Source: Micrococcales bacterium
GTDB lineage: Bacteria > Actinomycetota > Actinomycetes > Actinomycetales > Microbacteriaceae
Assembly: GCA_016212425.1 (NCBI GenBank)
Contig: JACRGJ010000126.1
Span: 1 to 64,000 of the forward strand
Direction: 5' to 3'
Length of the DNA stretch: 64,000 nt
Shown here: piece after piece, positions 39,430-43,701 of the stretch
How the letters are laid out: every line of letters starts with the position of its first letter
How positions within the stretch are numbered: position 1 is the first letter of the stretch
Notes under the pieces: generated by a model
What the model was told of the DNA's origin: nothing
What the model saw: the letters and a program-made list of their open reading frames with translations, nothing else
Database searches by the model: none
Position numbers and translations under genes: made by a program

Positions 39430-39837
39430 ATGGTCCGCCTCGTCGTGCGTCTGCTGATCAACGCCGTCGCCCTCTGGCTGACCACGCTCCTCCTCGCCCC
39501 GAATGTGATGGTCGAGCCGTATCCGCCCGGCGGGGCCTCGGAATCCGTGCTCACCTTCCTGCTGGTGGCCTTCATCTTCGGGCTGGTGAACGGGGTGATC
39601 GGCACCGCCGTGCGCGTCATCGCCTTCCCGCTATACCTGCTGACCCTCGGGCTCCTCGCCCTGGTGGTCAACGGGCTGCTGCTGCTGCTCGTAGCCTGGC
39701 TCACCAACCTCCTCGGGTTCGGCCTGTACATCGAGGGCTTCGGGTGGGGCGTGCTGGGGGCTCTCCTCCTGGGCGTCATCTCGTGGCTGCTCGGCATCCT
39801 GCTGCGGCCGTGGACGCGTCGCGAGCAGCGGCCGTAG
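39430..39837 (+). CDS. Phage-holin-4-like four-helix membrane protein
   Basis: A 135-residue membrane protein of the mycobacterial-type phage holin 4_2/DUF360 superfamily: four helices, with LTFLLVAFIFGLVNGVIG and LPLYLLTLGLLALVVNGLLLLLVAWL-type segments. Despite the name the family is chromosomal and not evidence of a prophage. ATG start; CACACT ends 6 bases before it, a weak leaderless-type promoter. The stop is 9 bp from the convergent hydrolase gene. Confidence 0.75.
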   Translation: MVRLVVRLLINAVALWLTTLLLAPNVMVEPYPPGGASESVLTFLLVAFIFGLVNGVIGTAVRVIAFPLYLLTLGLLALVVNGLLLLLVAWLTNLLGFGLYIEGFGWGVLGALLLGVISWLLGILLRPWTRREQRP

Positions 39838-39846
39838 GTCCGCCTC

Positions 39847-41388
39847 TCACCGGACCCGATCCCCGACGACCCTCGGCGCGCCCGGCTCCAGCCACGCCGG
39901 CCGGTCGGGGCCGACCCGGGTCGCCTGGTAGGTGAAGCCGGTGATCGTCGCACCCGGCAGCGCGGCCTGGTCGGCGGTGAAGCGCCGCATCGTCTCGAGC
40001 TGCGCCCGCACCTCGGGGGAGGAGGCCGCGTCGATCTGCGCGGCGGTCCGCTCGTAGGAGTCGCGCTGGTGGGCGGGCGCGGGCTCCCCGGCGGGGATCC
40101 CGTCGGGGAAGGCCCGCTGCTCGATGAGCATCCGCTCGCTCGGCCGGTCGGCCCCCGCGAGCGCGGGGACCAGGTCGTCGGTGTGGCGGACGTTCATGCC
40201 GGGGAGCCCGTCCGGCAGGGGGAGGTTGCCGATCGGCGCCCCGAAGGTGTCAAGCCCGGCGCTGCTCCATCCGCCCGAGGCGGCGAGCATCCCCGCGACC
40301 AGCCCGCCCTGGGAGAAGCCGACGAACTGAACCGGGTCCCCGGCGGCCACTCCCGCGTCGCGCATCGCCTGCTCCGTCGCCCGGTACGAGCCGGCGGTGC
40401 GGCCGGCGACGCCGTCGACGTTGCTGGTCAGGTCCCATGGCTCCCCGGTCGCCGCGGGGCTGAACGTCTCTGTCGGGTCGATGTAGACCACCCACCGCGT
40501 GGTCGATCCCGGGGCGGAATAGCGCTCGATGTACACCTGCGGATCGGGACCCCGGCTGTCGCTCGGCACCCGCGCCAGACGCTGGACGAGGGTCGCCGGA
40601 GGGGCCGCGACGGCGCGCTCGCCCACCCGACGCACCCGCACGTCGCTCTCCTGGAAGAGCCCGAGGACGGCGCCGCCCGCCAGCACGGCGGTGCCGCCGA
40701 CCTCGACGCCGGCGCCGGATCCGCTGCTGCCGAGAACCCACGCGAAGGGCCAGGGCACTCCGGCAGCGCCCAGCAGCGCATCGTCGATGGAGGACGCGAA
40801 TCCTCGCACGACGGCGACGAAGGCGGGGCTGGTCACCAGCTCCGGATGCGCCAGCAGCAGTCGACCGATCGCCCGCTTCTTCTGGGCATCCGTCCCGGGG
40901 GCCAGGTGCCAGCCGAGCCAGCCGGACACGCCGAGATTCACGGCGGCGGACAGCAGCAGCGGCCAGGCCGCCCCGACCTGCGCGGCGATGAGCGCGCCCT
41001 GCGCCTGGGCGAGCCAGGACGCCGCGTCCTCGGCGCGGGCGTAGTCGGCAGCCGCCCGCTGCAATCGCGCGCGAAGCTCACCGGCCGCAGCTCCCGTGCG
41101 CCGAAGGCCCCCTGCCAGCTCCTCCGCCCGATCATCGAGGGCGCCCGCGGTGCCGGCCCAGGCGTCCGCGGGAACCAGCAGCAGACCGGCCCCGGTTGCA
41201 CGGGGCGCCTGCGCCACCCTCGTGGCGAGCTCCTCGAGCGCGTGGGCGAGCGCAGCGAGGCGCGCGCCGAGCGCGAGCATGGCGTCCGTCGACACCCCGA
41301 CCGCTCCTCCGCCGCGGATGAGCAGGGGGCCCGGCGGTGCCTGACCGGTGAGGGCCGGCAGCCGGATCGGGGGCGGCCGATCAGACAT
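39847..41388 (-). CDS. Alpha/beta hydrolase with WXG100-like N-terminal domain
   Basis: A 513-residue protein. Residues about 30-122 are helical and resemble a WXG100 protein: the turn ADAWAGTAGAL is followed by a long helix ending YARAED, a YxxxE signal like that of type VII substrates. A hydrophobic part (about 135-250) follows, then a hydrolase domain with nucleophile elbow GFSQGG (about 351-356), Asp in VRHTDDLVPAL and a late His. The gene overlaps by 8 bp the end of a small WxG-containing protein gene. Substrate and export are unknown; no EccC or EsaA-type genes lie in the window. Confidence 0.65.
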   Translation of the reverse strand: MSDRPPPIRLPALTGQAPPGPLLIRGGGAVGVSTDAMLALGARLAALAHALEELATRVAQAPRATGAGLLLVPADAWAGTAGALDDRAEELAGGLRRTGAAAGELRARLQRAAADYARAEDAASWLAQAQGALIAAQVGAAWPLLLSAAVNLGVSGWLGWHLAPGTDAQKKRAIGRLLLAHPELVTSPAFVAVVRGFASSIDDALLGAAGVPWPFAWVLGSSGSGAGVEVGGTAVLAGGAVLGLFQESDVRVRRVGERAVAAPPATLVQRLARVPSDSRGPDPQVYIERYSAPGSTTRWVVYIDPTETFSPAATGEPWDLTSNVDGVAGRTAGSYRATEQAMRDAGVAAGDPVQFVGFSQGGLVAGMLAASGGWSSAGLDTFGAPIGNLPLPDGLPGMNVRHTDDLVPALAGADRPSERMLIEQRAFPDGIPAGEPAPAHQRDSYERTAAQIDAASSPEVRAQLETMRRFTADQAALPGATITGFTYQATRVGPDRPAWLEPGAPRVVGDRVR

Positions 41389-41608
41389 CGGCGGCGGCCC
41401 GTCGCGCGGCGGCGAGGGAGTCCGCGGCGCGGGAACGGCAGCCCGCGAGGCGCCCGGCGAGGTCGCGCAGGGCGTCCGCGGCCACTCGCGCCGCGGGACC
41501 GCTCCACGTGTCCGGCTCGACCTCGGGCACCGTCATCCCCTCCGTCGCCTGGATCGCGGAATGGGCCAACCGCAACGCCTCCTCGATCGCCGCCGTGCGC
41601 GGATCCAT
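41381..41608 (-). CDS. Small WxG-containing helical protein
   Basis: A 75-residue helical protein with the turn DTWSGPAARVAADAL in its middle, flanked by two helices, the general shape of a WXG100 (ESAT-6-like) protein but shorter. A strong GGAGGGG lies 5 bases before the ATG. Its stop overlaps the start of the hydrolase gene by 8 bp, so the two are translated together and probably bind each other. The C-terminus lacks YxxxD/E, which is instead present in the partner. Type VII-type secretion is inference. Confidence 0.6.
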   Translation of the reverse strand: MDPRTAAIEEALRLAHSAIQATEGMTVPEVEPDTWSGPAARVAADALRDLAGRLAGCRSRAADSLAAARRAAADV

Positions 41609-41759: not shown

Positions 41760-42269
41760 ATGGCCGACCTCGCCACGCCACCGGCGTTCCAGGTGTGCTT
41801 CGTCTGCACCGGCAACATCTGCCGCTCGCCCACCGCGGAGATCGTGTTCCGGAGCCTGATCCACGACCGGGGACTCGGTGAGCGCCTCACGGTCTCCTCG
41901 GCCGGCACCGGGGACTGGCACGTGGGGGAGATGGCCGACCCTCGAGCGATCCGGGCACTCGCCCGACGCGGCTACGACGGCTCGGCGCACCGCGCCCGGC
42001 AGTTCGACCCCGACTCCTTCGATCGGCTCGACCTCGTCGTCGCCTTCGATCGCGGGCAGGAGCGCTTCCTCACCCAGGCGGCCCCGACCGATGCCGACCG
42101 CGCGAAGGTAGGGTTGCTGCTGTCGTTCGACCCCGAGGCGGGCGCCTCCCGGGAGGTGCCCGATCCGTACTACTCGGACTCGACCGTGTTCGACGACGTG
42201 CTCGCCCTGATCGAGCGCGCCTGCCTGGCGCTGTTCCGCCAGATCGAGCCCGGCGTCCGCGCCGGCTGA
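41760..42269 (+). CDS. Low-molecular-weight protein-tyrosine phosphatase
   Basis: A 169-residue phosphatase. The P-loop is VCTGNICRSP (CX5R, about 14-23) and the general-acid loop is VPDPYY (about 134-139), both intact. In actinobacteria such enzymes (PtpA-like) dephosphorylate tyrosine-phosphorylated proteins. The ATG at 41760 is preceded by CACACT 6 bases upstream and no ribosome site. It lies 46 bp before purB on the same strand. Confidence 0.9.
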   Translation: MADLATPPAFQVCFVCTGNICRSPTAEIVFRSLIHDRGLGERLTVSSAGTGDWHVGEMADPRAIRALARRGYDGSAHRARQFDPDSFDRLDLVVAFDRGQERFLTQAAPTDADRAKVGLLLSFDPEAGASREVPDPYYSDSTVFDDVLALIERACLALFRQIEPGVRAG

Positions 42270-42315: not shown

Positions 42316-43701
42316 GTGAGCCCGCTGCCTCCCCAGCCCCTGAGCCCGCTCGACGGCCGCTACCGCGCCGTCGTGGGCGGGATCGGCGAGCACCTCTCCG
42401 AGGCGGCGCTGAACCGCGCCCGCCTGCGGGTCGAGATCGAGTGGCTGATCACGCTCACCGAGCGTCGGATGTTCGGGTCGGCTCCGCTGACGGACGGGCA
42501 GCGGGACGCTCTCCGATCGGTTGCGGCGGACTTCGGGCAGCCCGAGATCGACCGGCTCGCCGAACTCGAGGCCACGACGCGGCACGACGTGAAGGCCGTC
42601 GAGTACCTGCTCCGCGAGCACCTCGCGCGCCTCGGGTTGGACGCGGTCGCCGAGCTCGCCCACTTCGCGCTCACCAGCGAGGACGTCAACAACCTCGCGT
42701 ACGCGCTCACCATCCGCGCCGCGGTGGAGGAGCTCTGGCTGCCCGCCTACCGACGGGTCACCGAGCGGGTCGAGGAGTGGGCCCGGCTCGAGCGCGGCAC
42801 CCCGATGCTCGCGCATACGCACGGCCAGCCGGCCACTCCGACGACCGTGGGCAAGGAGTTCGCGGTGGTGGCGCACCGCCTGCGCCGGCAGGAGCGGCGC
42901 ATCCGCTCGGTCGAGTGGCTCGGCAAGTTCAGCGGGGCGACCGGCACCTTCTCGGCCCACCTCGCCGCGGATCCGGATGCCGACTGGGCGGGCGTCAGCC
43001 GGGCGTTCGTCGAGGGGCTCGGGCTCTCCTGGAACCCGCTCACCACCCAGATCGAGTCGCACGATGCCGAGGCGGAGCTGTTCCAGGCGGTCTCGCACGC
43101 GGGCCGCATCCTGCACAACCTCGCCACCGACGTGTGGACCTACATCTCCATGGGGTACTTCTCCCAGGTGCCCGCCGCGGGGGCGACCGGCTCCTCGACG
43201 ATGCCGCACAAGATCAACCCCATCCGGTTCGAGAACGCCGAGGCGAATCTCGAACTGGCCTCCGCGCTGCTGGACGCGCTGGCCGCCACGCTCGTCACGA
43301 GCCGGCTCCAGCGCGACCTCACCGACTCGACGTCGCAGCGGAACATCGGCGTCGCCCTGGGGCACTCGCTGCTCGCGCTCGACAACCTGCACCGCGGGCT
43401 GGGCGAGATCGCGGTGGCCCGCGAGGTGCTCGCCGCCGACCTCGACCGCAACTGGGAGGTGCTGGCCGAGGCGATCCAGACCGTCATCCGCGCCGAGGTG
43501 GTGGCCGGGCGCTCGGCGATCACCGACCCCTACGCGCTGCTCAAGGGCCTGACCCGCGGGCAGCGCATCGGCCACGAGGAGCTCGCGGTCTTCGTCGAAG
43601 GGCTCGACATCCCGGATGCGGCGAAGCGGCGGCTCACCGCTCTCACCCCCGCCTCCTACACGGGTCTGGCGGACGCGCTCGTCGACCATCTCGACGGCTA
43701 G
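42316..43701 (+). CDS. purB: Adenylosuccinate lyase
   Basis: A 461-residue fumarase/aspartase-superfamily enzyme that cleaves SAICAR and adenylosuccinate in purine synthesis. TSEDVNNLAYAL, LAHTHGQPATPTTVGKE and the signature GSSTMPHKINPIRFENAE are diagnostic; the HTH catalytic His is in THGQ. GTG start with GGAGGGG 4 bases upstream. A small hairpin (43733-43751) between it and the convergent small-membrane-protein gene may end both. Confidence 0.96.
   Translation: MSPLPPQPLSPLDGRYRAVVGGIGEHLSEAALNRARLRVEIEWLITLTERRMFGSAPLTDGQRDALRSVAADFGQPEIDRLAELEATTRHDVKAVEYLLREHLARLGLDAVAELAHFALTSEDVNNLAYALTIRAAVEELWLPAYRRVTERVEEWARLERGTPMLAHTHGQPATPTTVGKEFAVVAHRLRRQERRIRSVEWLGKFSGATGTFSAHLAADPDADWAGVSRAFVEGLGLSWNPLTTQIESHDAEAELFQAVSHAGRILHNLATDVWTYISMGYFSQVPAAGATGSSTMPHKINPIRFENAEANLELASALLDALAATLVTSRLQRDLTDSTSQRNIGVALGHSLLALDNLHRGLGEIAVAREVLAADLDRNWEVLAEAIQTVIRAEVVAGRSAITDPYALLKGLTRGQRIGHEELAVFVEGLDIPDAAKRRLTALTPASYTGLADALVDHLDG

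What the first reader, a model, noticed from the sequence alone, without database searches (positions are those of the whole stretch)
39847..41608. WXG-like small protein fused in function to a hydrolase with its own WXG-like domain
A 75-residue protein with a WSG turn overlaps by 8 bp a 513-residue hydrolase whose N-terminus has a WAG turn and ends its helix with YARAE, a YxxxE type VII signal. This is the layout of a type VII substrate (two helical hairpins, signal on one partner) carrying a GFSQGG hydrolase domain, yet no secretion genes are nearby. It may be an exported enzyme or toxin.
Basis: partly seen in the sequence, partly recalled or inferred. Interest (0 to 1): 0.55.

Follow-up and report, generated by a model that had tools for sequence, protein, structure and literature searches.

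The report
Hidden type VII esterase export pair
Two overlapping genes look like a matched pair built for export, a small helper and a serine esterase, that a family of mostly free-living actinobacteria keeps together with a stripped-down export motor encoded elsewhere in the genome; if so, this is an overlooked everyday use of a secretion system best known from pathogens.

Summary
In detail: a 75-aa ORF (W35-S-G) overlaps by 8 bp a 513-aa hydrolase (W77-A-G, Y116-ARA-E120, GFSQGG). The pair is real. In 80 homologous loci (the best 80 of 124) the small partner lies directly upstream in 74, its Trp invariant. In the hydrolase, Y-x-x-x-D/E is kept in nearly all loci and Ser359/Asp405/His440 in 80 of 80. 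The hydrolase's own WAG is not conserved. AlphaFold gives two helical hairpins plus an alpha/beta hydrolase. The layout splits a bipartite type VII signal: W-x-G on the partner, Y-x-x-x-E on the enzyme. Secretion genes are not nearby, but the genome carries an EccC-like ATPase and one WXG100 on other contigs. Across 279 Microbacteriaceae genomes hydrolase and WXG100 coincide (206 both, 2 WXG100 only, 11 hydrolase only, 60 neither, cuts set afterwards); all 177 with a strong EccC hit have both. Ten pair-less genomes lack it between conserved neighbours. Best reading: an esterase substrate of a dispersed, reduced T7SS (no EccB or YukD/EccD domain found here), a housekeeping trait rather than an antibacterial toxin. 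Pairing, export and catalysis are inferred. New variant of a known kind.

The parts
41381..41608 (-). small WXG-like partner, 75 aa; AlphaFold helices 3-23 and 38-74
   Evidence: ORF; profile and conservation; model pLDDT 86
41504..41506 (-). codon of invariant Trp35 (W-S-G turn of the partner)
   Evidence: invariant in all 75 rows of A4
39847..41388 (-). hydrolase, 513 aa, with N-terminal export-type helical hairpin
   Evidence: ORF; homologues; model pLDDT 88, pTM 0.88
40969..41307 (-). N-terminal helical hairpin domain (residues 28-140; helices 35-66 and 74-140)
41029..41043 (-). Y116-A-R-A-E120, candidate YxxxD/E export signal, on helix 2 beyond the stretch opposite helix 1
40666..40965 (-). 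helical middle region (residues 142-241); the one hydrophobic 19-residue window over the threshold (132-150) overlaps its start
39913..40644 (-). alpha/beta serine hydrolase domain (residues 249-492)
40303..40320 (-). nucleophile elbow GFSQGG with Ser359
   Evidence: Ser359 in 80 of 80 loci
40174..40176 (-). Asp405 of the inferred triad
   Evidence: 80 of 80 loci
40069..40071 (-). His440 of the inferred triad
   Evidence: 80 of 80 loci
41760..42269 (+). flanking low-molecular-weight protein tyrosine phosphatase, divergent neighbour marking the fixed locus
   Evidence: Pfam PF01451; synteny
42316..43701 (+). flanking adenylosuccinate lyase (purB)
   Evidence: Pfam PF00206 and PF08328; near the pair in 76 of 80 loci
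39430..39837 (+). flanking PF04020 membrane protein, convergent neighbour
   Evidence: Pfam; 75 of 80 loci

Best explanation
The two genes encode a type VII secretion substrate pair. The small W-x-G hairpin binds the N-terminal hairpin of the hydrolase in the cytosol to make an Esx/PE-PPE-like four-helix bundle, which brings the partner's W-x-G near the hydrolase's Y-x-x-x-E. The EccC-like membrane ATPase encoded elsewhere, with the single core WXG100 protein, then exports the folded complex. Outside the membrane the alpha/beta hydrolase acts as a serine esterase or lipase, probably on envelope or extracellular esters, as a conserved housekeeping function. Shown: ORFs, linkage, motif and triad conservation, predicted hairpins and hydrolase fold, co-inheritance with WXG100 and EccC, absence from a conserved neighbourhood in other genomes. 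Inferred: dimer, export route, catalysis, substrate.
For: Partner upstream in 74 of 80 loci, W invariant. YxxxE/D and triad conservation. Folds. EccC-like ATPase in the genome, closer to EccC/EssC than to FtsK (172-218 vs 50 bits), and a WXG100 over cut-off. Co-inheritance in 279 genomes: 206 both, 2 WXG100 only, 11 hydrolase only, 60 neither; all 177 strong-EccC genomes have both. Homologous hydrolases near type VII genes: in L125 within 2 kb of a WXG100 (PF06013 over cut-off) and an EssC-type ATPase; in L123 1 kb from an EssC-type ATPase, a WXG100 about 10 kb off, and its N-domain matches Pfam T7SS_signal at 1.6e-9. Absence from the conserved site in 10 pair-less genomes; two genomes of one genus lack hydrolase, WXG100 and strong EccC while two sister genomes keep them. 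Partner profile: ESAT-6-like chains (4i0x, E 0.008 and 0.024) are the best named PDB hits, ahead of designed coiled coils. No N-terminal hydrophobic segment in 77 of 78.
Against: Neither window protein reaches any Pfam or NCBIfam cut-off. Profile links to WXG100/PE are weak; for the hydrolase N-domain designed coiled coils score far better than ESAT-6-like or PE chains (6.5e-9 against 0.003); profile-profile 31% and 7% probability. No EccB or YukD/EccD domain in this genome, 96% complete, so the channel is unexplained. Of 31 WXG100-bearing genomes without a strong EccC hit, 7 showed no second FtsK-type ATPase over the cut-off, among them single-contig genomes of genus g14 (one of the 7, G200, does have an EccC-half hit at 3.5e-24). 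Co-inheritance is not tree-corrected, the E-value cuts were set after seeing the lists, and five genomes counted as having both have hydrolase hits as weak as the 11 set aside. Mirror-tree signal was not specific for the N-domain. A hydrophobic stretch exists in 66 of 78.
Confidence: 0.7

Rival explanations
1. The hydrolase is a cytosolic or membrane-anchored esterase, and the small hairpin is a chaperone or regulator; a hydrophobic helix inserts it by the general membrane route, without type VII export.
For: Hydrophobic 19-residue stretch in 66 of 78 homologues; no experimental proof of export; no recognised channel proteins.
Against: Does not explain why the pair comes and goes together with a WXG100 and an EccC-like ATPase at other loci, nor the invariant W and YxxxD/E, nor homologues near EssC-type loci.
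Confidence: 0.17
2. An antibacterial polymorphic toxin of the LXG kind, exported by type VII secretion.
For: Same general layout of small partner plus N-terminal helical domain plus enzyme domain as LXG effectors (starts of abstracts seen).
Against: Fixed housekeeping site (purB 76, PF04020 75 of 80), uniform enzyme domain with invariant triad, no adjacent immunity-like gene that I could see, kept in genomes of 1.2-1.4 Mb, no PADLOC match.
Confidence: 0.08
3. The motif resemblance is chance in two alanine-rich helical proteins of unrelated function.
For: Alanine-rich helices in high-GC genomes; weak profile scores; for the hydrolase N-domain, coiled-coil designs score better than ESX proteins.
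Against: Conservation of W and YxxxD/E over proteins of 26-47% (hydrolase) and 13-34% (partner) identity to the window's; co-inheritance.
Confidence: 0.05

Closest known systems
Mycobacterial PE/PPE-type lipases exported by ESX-5 (LipY; PE-PPE serine hydrolase domain, PF08237)
   Same: Export-type helical N-domain, YxxxD/E signal, serine hydrolase C-domain (LipY seen as a reference and in listings; details recalled).
   Different: No PE or PPE Pfam match in the window protein; the partner is a 75-aa W-x-G hairpin; no EccB here; fixed housekeeping locus; PF08237 matches only 5 of 78 members, best 0.03.
WXG100/ESAT-6 heterodimers (EsxA/EsxB, PF06013)
   Same: Two adjacent genes, helical hairpins, W-x-G turn, YxxxD/E on one partner (passages of PMC3935865 and PMC9765416).
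   Different: Below the WXG100 cut-off; one partner carries an enzyme; W-x-S is common in the partner (21 of 74).
T7SSb LXG effectors with small partner proteins
   Same: Small helical partner plus long effector with N-terminal helical domain (starts of abstracts; helical partner recalled).
   Different: No LXG match; esterase instead of varied toxins; no immunity gene seen; different phylum.
Homologous hydrolases near EssC-type loci (L123, L125 here; PF21725 T7SS_signal)
   Same: Homologous hydrolase domain, helical N-domain; in L125 also a 146-aa gene with W-R-S and a weak WXG100 match (4.1e-4) nearby.
   Different: Those sit by a 1,500-aa EssC-type ATPase and a WXG100; the window type is on another contig than its ATPase.

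Membership tests
Type VII secretion substrate pair (EsxAB clan type) | helical hairpin in each partner | tested here: met
   Partner H3-23/H38-74, pLDDT 86; hydrolase H35-66/H74-140, pLDDT 88; predicted models
Type VII secretion substrate pair (EsxAB clan type) | W-x-G at the turn of one partner | tested here: met
   W in 77 of 77 segments; next-but-one residue G 49, S 21, A 3 of 74; W-S-G in the window
Type VII secretion substrate pair (EsxAB clan type) | YxxxD/E on helix 2 of the other partner | tested here: met
   Y 71 and F 3 of 74; E 63, D 10 and S 1 of 74
Type VII secretion substrate pair (EsxAB clan type) | heterodimeric four-helix bundle | not testable with these tools
   complexes cannot be folded here; mirror-tree signal was unspecific
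Type VII secretion substrate pair (EsxAB clan type) | EccC/EssC-dependent export | not testable with these tools
   only co-inheritance with EccC and WXG100
WXG100 family PF06013 (small partner) | score over the curated cut-off | tested here: not met
   no hit for the window protein; 19 of 75 homologues match at E up to 1, best 6.6e-4
PE/PPE proteins | PE or PPE family match | tested here: not met
   no match for the window protein at E up to 10; a few homologues weakly (EspB_PE 3, PE-PPE 5 of 78)
LXG effectors | LXG domain match | tested here: not met
   no match for the window protein
Alpha/beta serine hydrolase | nucleophile elbow and Ser-Asp-His triad in an alpha/beta hydrolase fold | tested here: met
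   80 of 80 for each residue; model 249-492; best VIA Z 9.8, rmsd 4.2, 166 aligned, a feruloyl esterase; triad geometry not measured
Canonical T7SSa (ESX) machinery in this genome | EccB and EccD (YukD domain) beside EccC | tested here: not met
   PF05108 and PF08817 not found in G000, 96% complete
EccC/EssC ATPase (G000 C15) | closer to EccC/EssC models than to FtsK | tested here: met
   217.9 and 171.7 bits against 49.7 for FtsK, but under the full-length cut-offs; 5' end cut by the contig

The most novel reading that the evidence does not exclude
A reduced type VII system made only of an EccC-like ATPase, one WXG100 and unknown or no channel proteins, with its genes scattered over the chromosome, exports a core serine esterase with a dedicated W-x-G partner throughout much of Microbacteriaceae, as a housekeeping envelope function. 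In some streamlined genomes the ATPase shrinks to about 320 residues, one ATPase domain behind a short hydrophobic N-terminus.
Probability: 0.4. Interest if true: 0.8.

Novelty: new variant of a known kind. Interest (0 to 1): 0.6.

Why it matters
Type VII secretion is studied mostly as a virulence or antagonism machine with several membrane components. If this reading is right, a family of mostly free-living actinobacteria, including genomes of 1.2-1.8 Mb, keeps a pared-down type VII route for one everyday enzyme. That would let the minimal parts of type VII export, and the split of the W-x-G and YxxxD/E signal between partners, be tested directly in harmless bacteria. It would also correct annotations: one streamlined genome was published as having no type VII systems (PMC6106888, passage), yet the genome of the same length here (1,760,810 bp; identity inferred from length) carries the hydrolase with a W-R-G ORF upstream, the WXG100 and an EccC-like ATPase.

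Tried and rejected
Toxin or defence reading: no PADLOC or PHROGs match at E up to 0.01, no immunity-like neighbour seen, fixed site. A WXG motif in the hydrolase: W77 is not conserved. Naming the enzyme by family: window protein below every cut-off; homologues hit many alpha/beta hydrolase families weakly (of 78: PF03583 39, best 9e-5; PF06259 15, best 2.5e-7; PF01083 cutinase 19, best 3.6e-6; PF08237 5, best 0.03). Foldseek: no PDB match at E <= 0.001 for the hydrolase, nothing useful for the partner. VIA shows a general lipase/esterase fold only, and the tool warns that models without a clear match often reach Z 7-8. Sequence profiles against the PDB: for the partner, an unnamed chain (4lws, 0.0015) and ESAT-6-like chains (0.008, 0.024) head the list, with the first coiled-coil design at 0.15; for the hydrolase, coiled-coil designs head the list (6.5e-9) and ESAT-6-like and PE chains follow at 0.003-0.05. 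Profile-profile with the core WXG100: 31% and 7% probability, with the W-x-G and Y...E columns aligned. Mirror-tree: partner with N-domain partial correlation 0.19 (0 of 500 permutations reached it), with enzyme domain 0.37, so no specific evidence for N-domain pairing. A search with the 17-row alignment was too diverse; the six-row A2 was used. Literature: searches for type VII with WXG100 and Micrococcales (0 papers), with Microbacteriaceae (2), WXG100 with Microbacterium (2), and the broader, of which only the top 8-15 titles and starts of abstracts were listed; no description of this pair was seen there. Passages were read of PMC6106888, PMC5552033, PMC3935865 and PMC9765416; nothing was read whole.

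Full report
WHAT IS THERE. On the minus strand a 75-codon ORF (41608..41381) overlaps by 8 bp a 513-codon ORF (41388..39847). The small protein carries W35-S-G; the large one carries W77-A-G, Y116-A-R-A-E120 and GFSQGG at 357-362. The pair lies between a divergent low-molecular-weight phosphatase and adenylosuccinate lyase (purB) on one side and a convergent PF04020 membrane protein on the other. Neither protein reaches a Pfam or NCBIfam cut-off, nor matches PADLOC or PHROGs at E up to 0.01.

THE PAIR IS REAL. The hydrolase has matches in 43 of 59 relatives, own genome included. A scan of named genomes found 124 relatives and kept the best 80 as loci, most labelled Microbacteriaceae (genera of the family, by my knowledge), Micrococcales or Actinomycetota; one metagenome bin is labelled Acidobacteria. 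The six misses are L188 and L189 (contig ends inside the hydrolase), L208 (E 0.004), L214 (E 0.2), L212 and L213 (none). In 71 of 73 loci a possible hydrolase start codon lies within -30 to +60 bp of the partner's stop, and in 57 the nearest such start overlaps it (one of the 74 gave no start codon). The neighbourhood is fixed: of 80 loci, purB in 76, PF04020 in 75, the aminotransferase in 69, PDH E1 alpha in 67, the phosphatase in 63.

WHAT IS CONSERVED. In the partner the Trp is invariant (77 of 77 segments; all 75 rows of A4), followed two residues on by G (49), S (21) or A (3) of 74. In the hydrolase, residue 116 is Y in 71 and F in 3 of 74 loci with a residue there, and residue 120 is E in 63, D in 10, S in 1. 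The inferred triad Ser359, Asp405, His440 is present in 80 of 80. The signal is split: W-x-G on the small protein, YxxxD/E on the enzyme.

STRUCTURE. AlphaFold2 with family alignments gives a hairpin for the partner (helices 3-23 and 38-74, W35 at the turn; mean pLDDT 86, pTM 0.54). For the hydrolase it gives a hairpin (35-66 and 74-140), a helical middle region (142-241) and an alpha/beta hydrolase domain (249-492), pLDDT 88, pTM 0.88. Helix 1 has 32 residues, so the part of helix 2 opposite it ends near residue 106; [quoted passage not shown] This is read from the secondary structure, not from coordinates. The enzyme domain resembles lipases and esterases (best Z 9.8, rmsd 4.2, 166 residues, a feruloyl esterase); Foldseek gave no E <= 0.001. 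In 77 of 78 homologues there is no N-terminal hydrophobic segment, but 66 of 78 have a hydrophobic 19-residue stretch somewhere. The complex could not be folded with the tools.

THE SECRETION GENES ARE ELSEWHERE. In the same genome (2.56 Mb, 134 contigs, 95.9% complete) there is an FtsK on contig C46, a second FtsK-family ATPase at the start of C15, cut at its 5' end, and one WXG100 over cut-off on C31. The C15 protein scores 217.9 bits with EssC and 171.7 with EccCa against 49.7 with FtsK, below the full-length cut-offs. No YukD/EccD domain or EccB was found. In L115, L116, L120 and L132 the ATPase gene follows, in one run, genes of the clusters that in L115 are MoxR, DUF58, TgpA and a zinc-ribbon/FHA protein; the L115 ATPase has two N-terminal hydrophobic segments. 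This setting is not general: in L117, L118, L119, L121, L122 and L131 no MoxR, DUF58 or TgpA match was found within the stretch. EccB occurs in 13 of 59 relatives without following the pair (10 of 43 with a hydrolase match, 3 of 16 without).

CO-INHERITANCE. In 59 relatives the WXG100 orthologue (E <= 1e-14) accompanies the hydrolase in 37 of 43 and is present in 3 of 16 without it. In 279 Microbacteriaceae genomes the hydrolase is found in 217, the WXG100 in 216 at 1e-12 and the C-terminal half of EccC in 244 at 1e-10. At E <= 1e-20 the WXG100 is in 208: 206 with hydrolase, 2 without (G189, G262); 11 genomes have a hydrolase hit only; 60 have neither. All 177 genomes with a strong EccC hit (E < 1e-25) have both. 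At the search cut-off of 1e-12 the figures are 206, 10, 11 and 52. The 11 hydrolase-only hits are all weaker than 1e-27 and may be the paralogous type; I looked closely at one of them, G032, whose copy sits by an EssC-type locus (L125). But five genomes counted as having both (G017, G182, G193, G247, G275) have hits just as weak. The cuts were chosen after seeing the lists, and Fisher values (6e-47 for hydrolase and WXG100) ignore kinship. Of the 31 WXG100-bearing genomes without a strong EccC hit, mostly small genomes, 24 have an FtsK-type ATPase over the cut-off besides, or in G059 and G244 instead of, FtsK (G175 and G301 borderline; that of G266 is of the long type, 1,491 aa). G017, G090, G117, G118, G193, G200 and G268 have none, though G200 had an EccC-half hit at 3.5e-24. 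In genus g11 the open frame is 318-413 aa in five genomes and 560 in a sixth; the 318-aa one (G014) has one ATPase match and one N-terminal hydrophobic segment over the threshold. Three of four pair-less small control genomes also have a second such ATPase, of 1,324-1,593 aa.

ABSENCE FROM A CONSERVED SITE. In 10 pair-less genomes examined, the purB neighbourhood was found without hydrolase or partner: phosphatase and PF04020 retained in eight, PF04020 but no phosphatase in G018, neither in G009. In the eight, the distance between PF04020 and phosphatase matches is 35-183 bp in six, 435 in G007 and 803 in G023, against 1,853 and 1,826 bp in two genomes with the pair. In genus g66, G235 and G274 lack hydrolase, WXG100 and strong EccC, whereas G072 and G137 keep all three. 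I take this as a joint loss of separately encoded parts; direction not tested.

A DIRECT LINK. Homologous hydrolases found lie near type VII genes. In L125 the order is EssC-type ATPase (1,504 aa; 527 bits with EssC), WXG100 (1.6e-13, over cut-off), a 146-aa gene with W-R-S and weak WXG100 and T7SS_signal matches, a 307-aa gene, the hydrolase. In L123 the hydrolase lies beside a 1,554-aa ATPase and an FHA gene, with a WXG100 (9.3e-15) about 10 kb away, and its N-domain matches Pfam T7SS_signal (1.6e-9, over the cut-off).

READING. The most economical explanation is a T7SS substrate pair in which the small protein completes the export signal of a serine esterase, handled by a reduced, dispersed system of EccC-like ATPase and WXG100. 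Invariant catalytic residues, a fixed chromosomal site, retention in genomes of 1.2-1.4 Mb and no immunity-like neighbour speak for housekeeping rather than warfare. What the enzyme cuts, whether the pair binds, and how it crosses the membrane without recognised EccB/EccD are open.

AGAINST. Profile resemblance to WXG100/PE is weak, more so for the hydrolase than for the partner, the mirror-tree test was unspecific, several genomes break the ATPase rule, and nothing here is experimental.

COMPARISON. The closest working analogue is the mycobacterial PE-lipase LipY exported by ESX-5 (seen as a reference and in listings; details recalled). The window pair shares the design but fails membership tests for PE/PPE, LXG and the WXG100 cut-off. 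[quoted passage not shown] The genome here whose single contig has the same length, 1,760,810 bp (G034, identity inferred from length), has the hydrolase with an upstream W-R-G ORF, the WXG100 and an EccC-like ATPase (113.7 bits EccCa against 19.7 FtsK).

Noticed in passing
L119:8225-9178 (G014) and genus g11 genomes: EccC-like ATPase in open frames of only 318-413 aa in five genomes (560 in a sixth); the G014 one has one ATPase match and one N-terminal hydrophobic segment, a possible minimal type VII motor.
   Followed up: partly
L115, L116, L120, L132: The short EccC-like gene follows MoxR, DUF58, TgpA (transglutaminase) and zinc-ribbon/FHA genes in one run, a setting not usual for ESX loci as far as I recall.
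   Followed up: partly
L118 and L050 (G034, 1,760,810 bp): A streamlined genome of the length published for Pontimonas salivibrio, said there to have no type VII systems, carries hydrolase, WXG-like ORF, WXG100 and EccC-like ATPase.
   Followed up: partly
L123:11867-13657, L125:5823-7394, L129:7111-8757: A more diverse set of homologous hydrolases: two near EssC-type ATPases and WXG100 genes, one (L129) overlapping an upstream 127-aa gene and followed by a lipoprotein-like gene.
   Followed up: partly
window 39430-39837: The convergent PF04020 membrane protein is next to the pair in 75 of 80 loci but also stays in 9 of 10 pair-less genomes examined, so it is probably just a neighbour.
   Followed up: yes
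genus g14 (G017, G118, G175): Small genomes with hydrolase and WXG100 but no, or only a borderline, second FtsK-type ATPase; another exporter or a very divergent EccC is needed there.
   Followed up: no
L144: A metagenome bin labelled Acidobacteria holds the pair at 44% identity, with the partner upstream; probably a mislabelled Microbacteriaceae bin.
   Followed up: no
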